Assembly: GCA_011391635.1 (NCBI GenBank)
Contig: JAABQD010000018.1
Location: 1 to 53,137, forward strand
Reading direction: 5' to 3'
DNA length: 53,137 nt
Source: Sulfurimonas sp.
GTDB lineage: Bacteria > Campylobacterota > Campylobacteria > Campylobacterales > Sulfurimonadaceae
Shown here: positions 4,804 through 48,240 of the stretch, one piece after another
Numbering within the stretch: the first letter of the stretch is position 1
Layout: each line of letters opens with the position of its first letter
Program-made: the position numbers and the translations under genes
The notes under the pieces: generated by a model
Seen by the model: the letters and a program-made list of their open reading frames with translations, nothing else
Told to the model about the DNA's origin: nothing
The model's database searches: none

Positions 4804-5235
4804 ATGCAAGAGAAAAAAATCATTGGAACAAAAGAGATTATTTCGATTATAGATTTAGAACTTTTTGATTTGGATGTTAAGGTGGATACGGGTGCGGACT
4901 CAAATGCTTTGCATTGTGATGATATAGTGATAGATGATGAAAATTTTGTTCATTTTAGGTTACTTGACAAAGTACACTCCTCCTATCATGGGAAAAAAAT
5001 AAAAATGCCACTCTATAAAATAAAAAAAATTAAAAGTTCAAACGGGCATGTGGAACGACGACCTTCCATTAGAGTAAATGTTCTTTTTTTTGGAAGAAAA
5101 TACAAAACAGTTATCTCTTTGACAAATCGCTCAGATATGAAATTTCCTATGTTGATAGGAAGAAAATTTTTAGAAAATAAATTTTTAGTAGATGTTTCTC
5201 AAGAGTATTTAACAAGAAAAGTAGAAGGAAAATAA
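4804..5235 (+). CDS. Retropepsin-like (ATP-dependent zinc protease family) protein, RimB-type
   Basis: A 143-residue protein of the family annotated as ATP-dependent zinc protease (PF05618). The hallmark is KVDTGADSNAL near residues 26-36, the DTGA of retropepsin-like aspartic proteases, and a second conserved part with FPMLIGRKFL near residue 117. It is cytoplasmic with no signal. The gene lies one base before rimK, an arrangement known in other bacteria, where the protein is thought to trim or remove the glutamate tails that RimK adds. It is the first gene of a three-gene unit with its own promoter. A copy of the dispersed GGCATGTGG word lies inside at 5045. Confidence 0.8.
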   Translation: MQEKKIIGTKEIISIIDLELFDLDVKVDTGADSNALHCDDIVIDDENFVHFRLLDKVHSSYHGKKIKMPLYKIKKIKSSNGHVERRPSIRVNVLFFGRKYKTVISLTNRSDMKFPMLIGRKFLENKFLVDVSQEYLTRKVEGK

Positions 5236-5236
5236 A

Positions 5237-6187
5237 ATGAAAAATGGTAATAGAATGCTAGTGTATATACTCTCAAGAGAGCCTAAATTGTACTCTACAA
5301 AGAGATTAGTAGAGGCTGCTATGCAAAGAGATTGGGATGTACGCGTGATTGATTATCTCAAATGTAGTATTGAAATTATGAAAGACCATCTGCAAGTCAT
5401 TTATAATGGTGAAGTTTTACCAGCTCCTGATGCTATTATTCCCCGTATTGGTGCAAGTAAAACATTCTATGGAACTGCGATGGTACGACACTTTGAGATG
5501 ATGGATACTTTTAGTGTTGCAGGAAATTTAGCAATTGCAAGAAGTAGAGATAAGCTTAGAAGTTTGCAAATTTTGTCAAAACATGGCGTTGATATGCCAA
5601 AAACTGTTTTTGCTTCAAATAAATCAAGTGCAAAAGATGTCATTGCTCTGAGTGGTGGAGCACCTTTAGTACTAAAAATCCTTGAAGGAACACAAGGTGT
5701 AGGTGTCGTTCTTGTCGATAGTGAAAAAGCAGCAAAGTCTGTTTTGGATGCATTCTATGGTATGGATGTCAATTTACTTGTTCAAGAGTATATTGAAGAA
5801 GCAGGTGGAGCTGATATTCGTGTACTTGTTGTTGGTGGTGAAGTGGTCGGTGCGATGAAGCGACAAGGTGCAGAAGGTGATTTTAGATCCAATCTACATC
5901 AAGGTGGAACAGCCACAGCATATAAACTTAGTCGAAAAGAGAAGATGACAGCACTTGCAGCTGCAAAAGCGATGGGACTTGGAGTTTGTGGTGTGGATAT
6001 GATTCCATCGGCTCGTGGACCGCTGGTTATGGAGGTAAACTCTTCTCCAGGACTCGAGGGAATAGAAAAATCAACTGGCATTGATATCGCTGGAAAAATC
6101 ATGGATTATATTGCAAAACATGTGACACCTGTGTGTAAGGTCAATCCTGTAAAAAGAAAAAGAAAAAAAGATAGCATTGGAGCGTAG
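5237..6187 (+). CDS. rimK: ATP-grasp ligase, ribosomal protein S6 glutamate ligase RimK
   Basis: The 316-residue protein aligns along its length with RimK: LSREPKLYSTKRL near the N-terminus, PRIGASKTFYG, ARSRDKLRSLQIL, EGTQGVGVVL (ATP-grasp glycine loop), LVQEYIEEAGGADIR, and VMEVNSSPGLEGIE with metal ligands Glu and Asn near 265-275. RimK adds glutamate residues to the C-terminus of ribosomal protein S6 using ATP. The start could also be the Met six codons in, which is nearer the usual N-terminus. The C-terminus ends in a basic tail (VKRKRKKD) beyond the E. coli family end. It is flanked by a protease-like gene and a metallopeptidase gene, which suggests reversible glutamylation. Confidence 0.92.
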   Translation: MKNGNRMLVYILSREPKLYSTKRLVEAAMQRDWDVRVIDYLKCSIEIMKDHLQVIYNGEVLPAPDAIIPRIGASKTFYGTAMVRHFEMMDTFSVAGNLAIARSRDKLRSLQILSKHGVDMPKTVFASNKSSAKDVIALSGGAPLVLKILEGTQGVGVVLVDSEKAAKSVLDAFYGMDVNLLVQEYIEEAGGADIRVLVVGGEVVGAMKRQGAEGDFRSNLHQGGTATAYKLSRKEKMTALAAAKAMGLGVCGVDMIPSARGPLVMEVNSSPGLEGIEKSTGIDIAGKIMDYIAKHVTPVCKVNPVKRKRKKDSIGA

Positions 6188-6195
6188 GCGGGTAA

Positions 6196-7236
6196 ATGGA
6201 ACAATTTTATGATATTTTAAAACAACTTATCCGTGTTCCAAGTGTAGTTGGTGCGGAACATCCATTTTTTATGTTTGTCAAAAGAGAACTTGAAGAGTTA
6301 GGCGTAGCAGTTGAGTATTATGATGGGGTTTTAGTTGCAAAAGGGGAAGAACCCCAAAGTGGTTATATCTCCGCACATGCCGATAGACATGGACTCATCT
6401 GCACAGGACATAATGAATTTCAATACGCTGCATTTATAGCAAAAAATAGAGCTGATTTAACGGGTAATTCCAACTCTGAACAGCTTTTACATAACTTTAC
6501 CTCACGCTTTGTAGATGAAAAAGTTCAAGCATATCAGCCTTACTCAGGCACTTATCTTGGACTTGGTGTGATAAAAGAGGCTTTTTTATGTGAGCGAAGA
6601 AACAACATTATTTTCAAAGTTGAGGGTTTTGATTATCTTTTTCCGTCCACTCCAATTGCTTTTATGGATAGACTTGAGTTTAAAGATGATTTGATTTCTG
6701 CACAACTTGACAATGTAATTTCTGTGGCTATGATAATTTACATGTACCAAATCGGCTACAAAGGAACAGCTTTTTTTACCGCTTCAGAAGAGGCTGGTAA
6801 GAGTTGGAGATTTTTGCTTGAGTGGTTTAGAAGATTTAACATTAGTACAAATGAGTTACTCGTTTTGGATACAAGCCCCTACTCGAGTTTGGATGATATT
6901 CATCAACTCGATATAGTTTTGAGAAACCGTGATACGAATGCAGTTTTTAGATCTCCTCTCAAAAATAGAATGAAAAAAATAGCACAGCAAGAGGGAATCA
7001 AGTTTCATTTTAAAGATGTCTATTTGAAAAATAAAGTAACACAAAATGGAACAAAAAGATTACTAGGAACAACAGAGTTAGGGCGTATTATCCATGCAAC
7101 AGATGGAGCAATTCAAGGTGCGACGCTTCAAATTCCAACCATTGGCTATCATACGGTTAATGAAACGACTTCAGTGAAAGCAGTCGAAAGTATGATAAAG
7201 ATACTCAAGAGATTATATATCAAATCTTCTCTTTAA
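6196..7236 (+). CDS. M42/M20-type co-catalytic metallopeptidase
   Basis: A 346-residue cytoplasmic protein with the pattern of zinc-dependent aminopeptidases of clan MH. Metal and catalytic residues are visible in order: HADRHG (His61, Asp63), a bridging Asp in AQLDNV, the Glu pair in SEEAGKSW near 197, an Asp in LDTSPY, and the last His in IPTIGYHTVNE near 318. The region between the first His and the bridging Asp (about 65-165) holds an inserted domain, as in M42 enzymes. It follows rimK by 8 bases with GGCGGGT upstream, so it belongs to the same operon and may release glutamate or peptides from RimK products. Substrate is not determined by sequence. Confidence 0.78.
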   Translation: MEQFYDILKQLIRVPSVVGAEHPFFMFVKRELEELGVAVEYYDGVLVAKGEEPQSGYISAHADRHGLICTGHNEFQYAAFIAKNRADLTGNSNSEQLLHNFTSRFVDEKVQAYQPYSGTYLGLGVIKEAFLCERRNNIIFKVEGFDYLFPSTPIAFMDRLEFKDDLISAQLDNVISVAMIIYMYQIGYKGTAFFTASEEAGKSWRFLLEWFRRFNISTNELLVLDTSPYSSLDDIHQLDIVLRNRDTNAVFRSPLKNRMKKIAQQEGIKFHFKDVYLKNKVTQNGTKRLLGTTELGRIIHATDGAIQGATLQIPTIGYHTVNETTSVKAVESMIKILKRLYIKSSL

Positions 7237-47532: not shown

Positions 47533-47631
47533 AGTTGATTGTGTCCTAGGTCGTATTAATTGGTCAGCATTATAACATTTAAGAGAGTTTTATGTAAAAT
47601 TCAAAAATTATTTTCAAAAAAAAGGTGTTTT

Positions 47632-48198
47632 ATGGCAACTGTAGGCATGAGTGATATCAAAAAAAATGTTCGTCTGATTGTAGGTGAAGTACCGTACAAA
47701 GTAGTCGAGTTCCAACATGTGAAACCAGGCAAGGGTGCGGCATTTGTTCGTATGAAGATGAAGAGTTTTTTAAATGGAAAAGTCGTTGAAAAAACTGTTC
47801 ACGCTGGAGATAAGTTTGAAGTTCCTGAAATCACTTATACAACGATGCAATTTCTTTATGATGATGGCGAAGCGTTCCAATTTATGGATAATGATTCGTA
47901 TGAGCAGTTGGCTCTTTCGTACGAGCAGTGTGATGATGCGTCTAAATGGTTCAAAGATGGTATTAATGTAGATATTATTTTCTACAAAGGCAATGCTATT
48001 TCTGTAAGTGCACCTGAAATCATGGAACTTGTTATTACTGATACGCCTCCAAACTTCAAAGGCGACACTTCAAGCGGAAGCAGAAAACCTGCTACTTTAG
48101 AGACAGGTGCGGTCGTTCAAGTGCCTTACCATGTTCTTGAAGGCGATACTATTAAAGTGAATACTGTAGATTGTGAGTATTTAGAAAAAGTAAAATAA
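47632..48198 (+). CDS. efp: Translation elongation factor P
   Basis: From ATG 47632 (AAAGG upstream) the product is 188 residues, the standard EF-P length. The start is ATVGMSDIKKN, and the modification loop HVKPGKGAAF carries Lys at the usual position 34 or so. The C-terminal OB domain ends with VQVPYHVLEGDTIKVNT. EF-P relieves ribosome stalling at polyproline. The gene is followed by a perfect palindrome made of two copies of the dispersed word. An ORF extension upstream to 47560 has no RBS and is not used. Confidence 0.96.
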   Translation: MATVGMSDIKKNVRLIVGEVPYKVVEFQHVKPGKGAAFVRMKMKSFLNGKVVEKTVHAGDKFEVPEITYTTMQFLYDDGEAFQFMDNDSYEQLALSYEQCDDASKWFKDGINVDIIFYKGNAISVSAPEIMELVITDTPPNFKGDTSSGSRKPATLETGAVVQVPYHVLEGDTIKVNTVDCEYLEKVK

Positions 48199-48206
48199 AT
48201 TATCCT

Positions 48207-48240
48207 CTTTTGGCATGTGGAAATTTCCACATGCCAAGAG
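48207..48240. terminator. Perfect palindrome of two inverted copies of the dispersed word after efp
   Basis: TTGGCATGTGGAAA (48210-48223) and its exact complement (48224-48237) abut with no spacer, giving a 28-bp perfect palindrome, extended by a T-G and two more pairs. In RNA it would fold into a long hairpin with the A/T centre as loop, 11 bases after the efp stop. There is no long T tract, but TTTCACTTTCC follows. Confidence 0.8.

What the first reader, a model, noticed from the sequence alone, without database searches (positions are those of the whole stretch)
5045..48235. A new candidate DNA uptake sequence, GGCATGTGGA, in a Campylobacterota genome
By manual scan the 9-mer occurs 34 times in 53 kb, exactly 17 in each orientation, against about 0.1 expected for GC near 35% (my estimate). 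33 of 34 extend to GGCATGTGGA, with T-rich bases before and A/T after (consensus TTGGCATGTGGAW). Copies fall in unrelated genes (coaX, pdxA, dsbD, lpxB, GGDEF-EAL, tamB) and are read in different frames as Pro-His-Ala, Trp-His-Val or Met-Trp. Selection therefore acts on DNA, not protein. Dispersion, equal strand use, a short asymmetric core with AT-rich flank and inverted pairs at gene ends are known properties of Neisseria DUS and Haemophilus USS. I know of no such element described in this phylum. Alternatives are a protein-binding site or an HIP1-like word.
Basis: partly seen in the sequence, partly recalled or inferred. Interest (0 to 1): 0.93.

Follow-up and report, generated by a model that had tools for sequence, protein, structure and literature searches.

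The report
Self-DNA uptake code in Sulfurimonas bacteria
This Sulfurimonas genome carries the ten-letter DNA word GGCATGTGGA about 1,300 times, and relatives carry other words hundreds to thousands of times; the words are likely tags by which these bacteria would recognise and take up DNA of their own kind, a habit described, in the papers read, from two other bacterial families only.

Summary
Genome-wide there are 1298 copies (644/654 by strand) against 2 for the word read backwards, one per 1.8 kb. It lies on both strands, in all six reading frames, is four times denser between genes and often forms inverted pairs. Relatives in the same genus carry other words: TACATGTARA (7 of 37 genomes) and CTGCGTGAG (5 of 37); GGCATGTGGA itself is in 3 of 37. 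TACATGTARA is also enriched in 43 of 44 genomes of a second family (up to 2,392 matches) and in none of 308 genomes of other families. The words cluster on a PriA tree (18 changes; 35.5 shuffled). Word sites are kept in word-using relatives more often than other 10-mers. ComEC, DprA, a type II/IV-pilus-like apparatus and priA-linked pilins are present; in Campylobacter jejuni a pilin-like gene before priA is needed for DNA uptake. Best reading: DNA uptake sequences with dialects, a third lineage beside Neisseriaceae and Pasteurellaceae. Uptake is untested and no receptor was found: the priA-linked pilin does not follow the dialects, and the nearest relative has largely lost the word.

The parts
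5045..5054 (+). GGCATGTGGA word, in ORF 4804-5235
7533..7542 (+). word, overlapping the start of ORF 7220-7537(-)
8527..8536 (-). word in coaX 8402-9019
8580..8589 (+). word in coaX
8632..8641 (+). word in coaX
8944..8953 (-). word in coaX
14438..14447 (+). word in ORF 14288-15382(-)
17911..17920 (-). word in ORF 17218-18666(-)
18463..18472 (+). word in ORF 17218-18666(-)
19207..19216 (+). word in ORF 19105-20325(-)
19552..19561 (-). word in ORF 19105-20325(-)
20079..20087 (-). 9-mer GGCATGTGG only (tenth base differs), in ORF 19105-20325(-)
20811..20820 (+). word in lpxB 20738-21793
23044..23053 (-). word in ORF 22877-23785
23214..23223 (+). word in ORF 22877-23785
24550..24559 (+). word between the ends of two convergent ORFs (24535 and 24566)
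25305..25314 (-). word in dsbD 24959-26737(-)
26642..26651 (+). word in dsbD
27813..27822 (-). word in ORF 26860-28044
28238..28247 (-). word in GGDEF-EAL gene 28102-30954
28725..28734 (-). word in GGDEF-EAL gene
30071..30080 (+). word in GGDEF-EAL gene
30568..30577 (+). word in GGDEF-EAL gene
33832..33841 (-). word in ORF 33062-35248(-)
35487..35496 (-). word across the start of ORF 35492-37426
36115..36124 (-). word in ORF 35492-37426
39207..39216 (+). word 10 bases after the stop of ORF 38228-39196
40928..40937 (+). word in pdxA 40750-41664
40974..40983 (+). word in pdxA
41307..41316 (-). word in pdxA
45138..45147 (-). word in tamB 43448-46315
46386..46395 (-). word between tamB and tgt 46405-47532(-), 9 bases after the stop of tgt
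48212..48221 (+). word, first arm of an inverted pair, 13 bases after the stop of the elongation factor P gene
48226..48235 (-). word, second arm; the pair folds as a 15-bp hairpin, -24.6 kcal/mol, z -6.5

Best explanation
GGCATGTGGA, present 1298 times in this Sulfurimonas genome, is likely a DNA uptake sequence: a surface pilus protein of the cell's natural-transformation apparatus is predicted to bind the word in free DNA, so that DNA of the same kind would be taken up preferentially. Shown here: the word, its number, its even strand use, its intergenic excess and inverted pairs, the different words of related species and of a second family, their clustering on a gene tree, and the presence of comEC, dprA, a secretin/ATPase/pseudopilin cluster and priA-linked pilins. 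Inferred: that the word is recognised at uptake; that biased uptake and recombination made it accumulate; that the words of relatives are dialects of one system, aligned by eye on a core like (C/T)(A/G)(T/C)GT (CATGTGGA, CATGTAGA, CATGTAAA, TGCGTGAG, TGCGTTTA); that the binding protein is a (minor) pilin.
For: 1298 copies vs 2 for the reversed word. Core plus flank preferences T at -4 and -2, T or C at -1, A at +10, T at +12. Intergenic 1.72/kb vs coding 0.44/kb; 85 with and 92 against the gene; all six frames. No polarity over 200 kb of one contig (60/62). 32 neighbouring pairs with starts within 60 bp (about 7 expected from the density, my arithmetic); of 18 pairs with a gap of at most 30, 12 inverted. 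One-mismatch forms 70 vs 15 expected, against 243 exact vs 0.48. Same word in other assemblies: 887, 401, 314, 141, 81 and 55 copies, reversed word 0-1 each; 9 further genomes have 13 or fewer. Word sites identical in five loci of word-using relatives: 8 of 12 (L195), 3 of 9 (L193), 2 of 9 (L194), 2 of 6 (L196), 3 of 5 (L241), while other 10-mers are identical in 6-9%. Other words; on the PriA tree 18 changes vs 35.5 shuffled, 0 of 200 as low. ComEC in 40 of 41 and 11 of 13 genomes, DprA, secretin, T2SSE, T2SSF, T2SSG and pilins. A pilin-like protein encoded before priA (Cj0683) is needed to start DNA uptake in C. jejuni (PMC10046745, passages); two pilins precede priA here.
Against: No uptake experiment is known to me for this organism. 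The priA-linked pilin does not follow the dialects (31 genomes, residual +0.015, permutation p 0.98), and its domain (mean pLDDT 94) has no match at E <= 0.001 in the PDB, so no receptor is in hand. The nearest relative by PriA (L263/G060, 85%) has only 141 copies in 2.6 Mb and 0 of 12 aligned sites kept. Many relatives show none of these words (57 of 94 tree rows, some for want of DNA) although ComEC is nearly universal. CTGCGTGAG and CTGCGTTT are not denser between genes (0.61 vs 0.72 and 0.75 vs 0.82 per kb; TACATGTA is, 0.62 vs 0.35). The longest word-free stretches hold conserved operons, not mobile DNA. No short ComEA found with PF12836; in C. [quoted passage not shown]
Confidence: 0.72

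Rival explanations
1. The word is the target of a DNA methyltransferase (restriction-modification or orphan, HIP1-like), and its abundance reflects methylation, possibly with methylation-gated uptake as with RAATTY in Campylobacter jejuni.
For: C. jejuni, of the same order, takes up only native DNA methylated at RAATTY (PMC10046745, passages). GGCATGTGGA and TACATGTA share the palindrome CATG, and TACATGTA is itself a palindrome.
Against: The word is a contiguous, asymmetric 10-mer with preferred flanks, longer than restriction sites known to me; restriction sites tend to be rare rather than enriched (recalled). CTGCGTGAG and CTGCGTTTA lack CATG. Methylation was not measured.
Confidence: 0.1
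2. The word is a Chi-like recombination signal or another polar chromosome motif (KOPS).
For: Chi sites are short, over-represented and differ between species (recalled).
Against: No strand bias: 644/654 in the genome, 60/62 over 200 kb of one contig, 85/92 relative to genes; where the replichores end is not known. The palindrome TACATGTA cannot be polar. The excess lies between genes.
Confidence: 0.06
3. The word is the binding site of an abundant chromosomal protein (nucleoid-associated or a global regulator) or part of transcription terminators, without a link to uptake.
For: One inverted pair after a stop codon folds into a strong hairpin (-24.6 kcal/mol, z -6.5). TACATGTA is palindromic, as many regulator sites are (recalled).
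Against: 177 of 243 sites lie inside coding regions, in all six frames, which regulators or terminators do not explain. Words differ between related clades, which would need a genome-wide rewrite each time; biased uptake gives a mechanism for that.
Confidence: 0.1

Closest known systems
DNA uptake sequence (DUS) of Neisseriaceae (dialects, minor pilin ComP)
   Same: Short contiguous over-represented word, thousands of copies, permissive regions, inverted pairs at terminators, clade-wise dialects over a shared short core (PMC3630211, passages).
   Different: Other phylum; GGCATGTGGA lacks the neisserial core CTG (CTGCGTGAG and CTGCGTTTA happen to contain it); some words are palindromic (TACATGTA); ComP was not searched for; uptake untested.
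Uptake signal sequence (USS) of Pasteurellaceae
   Same: Word of about 9-10 bases, hundreds to thousands of copies, excess outside ORFs, terminator hairpins, two sequence types (PMC12616744 introduction; passages of PMC1852404, and PMC2346458).
   Different: Other phylum; inner core GCGG absent; no strong base preference beyond +12 in a profile that ends at +24.
Methylation-dependent uptake at RAATTY in Campylobacter jejuni
   Same: Same order; [quoted passage not shown] a pilin-like gene before priA (PMC10046745, passages).
   Different: Recognition there rests on methylation of a degenerate 6-mer, not on a rare, enriched 10-mer.
HIP1 of cyanobacteria (recalled, not searched)
   Same: Dispersed, strongly enriched short word of unsettled role; palindrome, like TACATGTA.
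   Different: One conserved word, not a set of dialects; GGCATGTGGA is not a palindrome.

Membership tests
DNA uptake sequence / uptake signal sequence (functional class) | Short word at hundreds to thousands of copies spread through the genome, far above expectation | tested here: met
   1298 copies, reversed word 2; 219 vs 0.44 by Markov model in 400 kb
DNA uptake sequence / uptake signal sequence (functional class) | Both orientations, coding and noncoding, intergenic excess | tested here: met
   GGCATGTGGA: 644/654; 85/92 vs gene, 1.72 vs 0.44 per kb. The intergenic excess is not seen for CTGCGTGAG and CTGCGTTT
DNA uptake sequence / uptake signal sequence (functional class) | Inverted pairs able to form hairpins near gene ends | tested here: met
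   12 of 18 close pairs inverted; the pair after the EF-P gene folds at -24.6 kcal/mol (the only pair folded); terminator activity not tested
DNA uptake sequence / uptake signal sequence (functional class) | Dialects that follow phylogeny | tested here: met
   18 label changes vs 35.5 shuffled on a PriA tree of 94 loci; only CTGCGTGAG is a single group there
DNA uptake sequence / uptake signal sequence (functional class) | Short core shared by all dialects | tested here: inconclusive
   A core like YRYGT can be aligned by eye; no statistical test was made
DNA uptake sequence / uptake signal sequence (functional class) | Depleted from recently acquired DNA | tested here: inconclusive
   The last 4.9 kb of the window (from 48236; YhcG and STAND/Mrr genes among them) have none, but the largest gaps are conserved operons
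DNA uptake sequence / uptake signal sequence (functional class) | Genes for transformation (pilus/secretin, ComEC, DprA) present | tested here: met
   ComEC is cut by a contig end in this assembly; a short ComEA was not found with PF12836
DNA uptake sequence / uptake signal sequence (functional class) | DNA with the word is bound and taken up better | not testable with these tools
   Needs a bench test; this is the defining function
Neisseriaceae DUS | Core CTG in every dialect | tested here: not met
   GGCATGTGGA and its reverse complement hold no CTG (sequence). Read as working like a DUS, not as a member of the neisserial family
Neisseriaceae DUS | ComP receptor | not tested
   ComP orthology was not searched; the one pilin modelled has no PDB fold match
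Pasteurellaceae USS | Inner core GCGG | tested here: not met
   No GCGG in the word or its reverse complement (sequence)
Chi / KOPS | Polarity relative to replication | tested here: not met
   60/62 over 200 kb of one contig, 644/654 overall; replichore limits unknown
Restriction-modification site | Methylated by a cognate methyltransferase | not testable with these tools
   No methylome available

The most novel reading that the evidence does not exclude
Campylobacterota hold a third, independently evolved self-DNA uptake code: one recognition system with at least five dialects (GGCATGTGGA, TACATGTA(A/G)A, CTGCGTGAG, CTGCGTTTA, TGGCGTTT) over two free-living families, some of them palindromic, read by the competence pilus, so that each lineage's genome is written in its own uptake language and a change of dialect isolates lineages.
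Probability: 0.6. Interest if true: 0.93.

Novelty: new variant of a known kind. Interest (0 to 1): 0.88.

Why it matters
[quoted passage not shown] A third, unrelated case in free-living sulfur bacteria would show that such codes arise repeatedly, would supply dozens of genomes with related but different words for receptor-word co-evolution, and would place a sequence code and a methylation code (C. jejuni) in one order. It also offers a practical route to genetics: adding the right word to DNA may make Sulfurimonas and Sulfurospirillum transformable.

Tried and rejected
(1) priA-linked pilin as dialect reader: a match in 48 of 60 genomes, also in families without the words; its distances do not follow the dialects after correction for PriA (31 genomes, p 0.98); 2 PDB sequence matches at E <= 1, both unrelated, and no fold match at E <= 0.001. 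Two neighbouring control proteins gave low p (M23 peptidase 0.009, FlgC 0.025) without a plausible role, which shows how weak that test is. (2) ComEC as discriminator: found in 40 of 41 and 11 of 13 genomes, so it separates nothing. (3) Depletion in mobile DNA: not shown; the largest deserts are conserved operons (gene identities there are my reading of the translations). (4) Chance and peptide motifs: excluded by shuffles, reversed-word controls and six-frame use. (5) Contamination or assembly artefact: made unlikely by 1298 copies in this genome and by the same word in independent named assemblies. One of these, LH_M75, yields two different PriA loci (L193, L194), so that bin may be mixed; L194 was left out of the tree.
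Full report
1. Observation. The window holds 34 copies of GGCATGTGG, 17 per strand, and 33 of GGCATGTGGA (shuffles 0.05, never above 1). In the whole assembly (2,345,822 bases, 84 contigs) the 10-mer occurs 644 times forward and 654 times reverse; the same word read backwards occurs twice. In 400 kb of this genome it departs most from an order-3 Markov model among 10-mers seen at least 20 times: 219 seen, 0.44 expected. 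The base profile around the sites is T at -4 (48%), T at -2 (66%), T or C at -1 (78/18%), A at +10 (67%), T at +12 (58%), with no strong preference further out: roughly TTGGCATGTGGAAAT. One-mismatch forms are 70 against 15 expected; 52 of the 70 differ at the first or the last two bases, and bases 3 to 8 give 11, about what chance gives (8.8 by summing that table).

2. Where the sites lie. In 436,381 bases (the window, 19 stretches taken by contig number, one of them 1,483 bases of N only, and two competence regions; 19% of the genome) there are 243 sites: 177 in coding DNA (0.44 per kb) and 66 outside (1.72 per kb). Orientation relative to the gene is 85 with and 92 against, and all six frames are used, with Pro-His-Ala the commonest reading. 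Genes were called by a simple longest-ORF rule, so the coding figure is approximate. Over 200 kb of contig 1 the strands are 60 and 62. There are 32 neighbouring pairs with starts within 60 bp, where random spacing would give about 7 (my arithmetic); of 18 pairs with a gap of 30 or less, 12 are inverted. The pair after the elongation factor P gene folds into a 15-bp stem (-24.6 kcal/mol, z -6.5).

3. Deserts. The two longest gaps are 19.2 kb and 16.1 kb (about 9.8 kb would be expected as the longest). By my reading of the translations they hold a TCA-cycle operon with 2-oxoglutarate oxidoreductase, and a ribosomal-protein operon: strongly constrained genes, not foreign DNA. The last 4.9 kb of the window, with a YhcG nuclease and an Mrr/STAND gene, have no word, but a gap of that length is not rare. 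Depletion in mobile DNA is therefore not shown.

4. Relatives with the same word. The genus is Sulfurimonas: genomes that the tool calls same genus have contigs of the same length as records so named (for example G036 contig 23, 94,467 bases); the own record was not among the named loci. GGCATGTGGA has 887 copies in Sulfurimonas sp. CG01_land_8_20_14_3_00_36_23, 401 in LH_M75, 314 in SMBSF56, 141 in the Lake Pavin bin, 81 in AUK240, 55 in SAG-AH-194-I05, and 13 or fewer in the other 9 of 15 genomes (reversed word 0-2). Of 60 genomes only this one, G035 (31) and G036 (55) exceed 7; those two counts are far below the 1298 here, and in samples their own commonest forms differ slightly.

5. Other words. 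K-mer discovery in 3-60 kb samples of relatives gave other words of the same kind. Whole-genome counts, word versus reversed word: TACATGTARA 710/18 (G006), 634/32 (G032), 576/13 (G011), 556/10 (G033), 346/9 (G034), 233/25 (G004), 180/16 (G017), 2072/11 (G055, another family); weaker and not counted, 94/28 (G021) and 39/8 (G005). CTGCGTGAG 365/2, 306/5, 267/3, 353/3, 397/2 in G007, G013, G020, G022, G027, and 14 or fewer in the other 55 of 60. With GGCATGTGGA that makes 15 of the 37 Sulfurimonas genomes of these calls. CTGCGTTTA and TGGCGTTT words were seen in samples only. Single loci suggest more: GGATGTAGA (L201), AGATGCAAA (L200), TAGTACTAA (L265). Many genomes showed no such word in the DNA sampled, among them the 16 rows of the Sulfuricurvum group (15 so named). 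CTGCGTGAG and CTGCGTTT are not denser between genes; TACATGTA is, 0.62 vs 0.35 per kb.

6. Breadth. In 398 genomes of the order (my reading of its table, criterion at least 60 matches and five times the reversed word) TACATGTARA is enriched in 43 of 44 genomes of one other family, in 8 of 46 of this family, and in 0 of 308 of all others. TACATGTA is a palindrome, so some sites count on both strands.

7. Phylogeny. On a PriA tree of 94 loci the word labels need 18 changes against 35.5 for shuffled labels (0 of 200 as low); CTGCGTGAG is the only label that forms one side of a branch; GGCATGTGGA needs 3 changes. Left out: L194, 7 loci that duplicate a genome already in the tree, and loci with too short a PriA. 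The labels rest on 3-436 kb per genome, and 57 rows are unlabelled, some for want of DNA. The nearest row to this genome (L263, 85% PriA identity) has lost or changed the word: 0 of 12 aligned sites kept, several as one- to three-base variants.

8. Conservation. In DNA aligned to the comEC-priA region of this genome (pieces of 66-90% identity), word sites are identical in five loci of word-using relatives in 8 of 12, 3 of 9, 2 of 9, 2 of 6 and 3 of 5 cases, against 6-9% of other 10-mers; in six loci whose own DNA there holds no exact word 0 of 51 sites are kept, where other 10-mers are identical in 4-13%. The numbers are small and from one region. They suggest that the word is held while its flanks drift.

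9. Apparatus. ComEC is found in 40 of 41 and 11 of 13 genomes; here it is cut by a contig end. DprA is present. A cluster with secretin, T2SSE, T2SSF, T2SSG and further N-methyl pseudopilins lies at contig 1, 262-278 kb. Two more pilins lie directly before priA, about 6 kb from comEC, a layout common in the genus; pilins before priA are also seen in a genome of another family. In C. jejuni the pilin-like Cj0683, in an operon before priA, is needed to start DNA uptake (PMC10046745, passages). Whether it is an ortholog of the pilin here was not tested. A short ComEA was not found with PF12836, whose one strong match lies in a 702-aa frame.

10. Receptor. The priA-adjacent pilin does not follow the dialects, and its predicted domain has no close solved relative. 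So the receptor is open.

11. Mechanism. Commitment: the words are DNA uptake sequences. A competence pilus protein would bind the word on free DNA, retraction would bring it through the secretin, ComEC would import one strand, and DprA/RecA would recombine it; biased import of word-bearing alleles would let the word accumulate wherever the gene tolerates it, which would explain the intergenic excess, the six-frame use and the deserts in constrained operons. A change in the receptor would start a new dialect. Shown: the sequence facts. Inferred: every step of recognition and uptake.

12. Literature. Searches for DNA uptake sequence, uptake signal sequence, DNA uptake or natural transformation with Campylobacter, Epsilonproteobacteria, Campylobacterota, Sulfurimonas or Sulfurospirillum (open-access PMC texts only; listings read, of which searches show the best 20 of 581 and 41) listed no report of such a word in this phylum. 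PMC12616744 (abstract and introduction read) names Neisseriaceae and Pasteurellaceae as the only families known. PMC3630211, PMC1852404, PMC2346458 and PMC2734928 (passages) describe dialects, terminator pairs, intragenic distribution and core-genome bias. Subscription papers and preprints were not searched.

Noticed in passing
L265 (21.8 kb, Campylobacterales bin M17): TAGTACTAA occurs 11 times, CTAGTACTA 7 times: another near-palindromic word of the same look, in another lineage.
   Followed up: no
window 49744-53066: YhcG/DUF1016 PDDEXK nuclease gene followed by a 766-aa gene with Mrr_cat and nSTAND3 domains: a likely defence pair at the window's end, free of the word.
   Followed up: partly
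L274:17-1026 (G011): A transposase-like reading frame split in two beside the T2SS cluster (identity from my reading).
   Followed up: no
L032/L102/L103 (G005), L118 (G043), L119 (G044), L126 (G051): Overlapping words repeated about 6-25 times in 20-60 kb, unlike the dispersed words; they look like CRISPR or other array repeats.
   Followed up: no
L263 / G060 (Lake Pavin bin): Closest relative by PriA, with only 141 exact copies in 2.6 Mb and variant forms at old sites: a possible case of a dialect in decay or change.
   Followed up: partly
L173:7463-7873 and the genes in its place in relatives: The first of the two pilins before priA is very variable, with unlike C-terminal domains even between genomes with the same word.
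   Followed up: partly
L193 and L194 (bin LH_M75, G061): Two different PriA loci in one bin, both rich in GGCATGTGGA: the bin may hold two strains or species.
   Followed up: no
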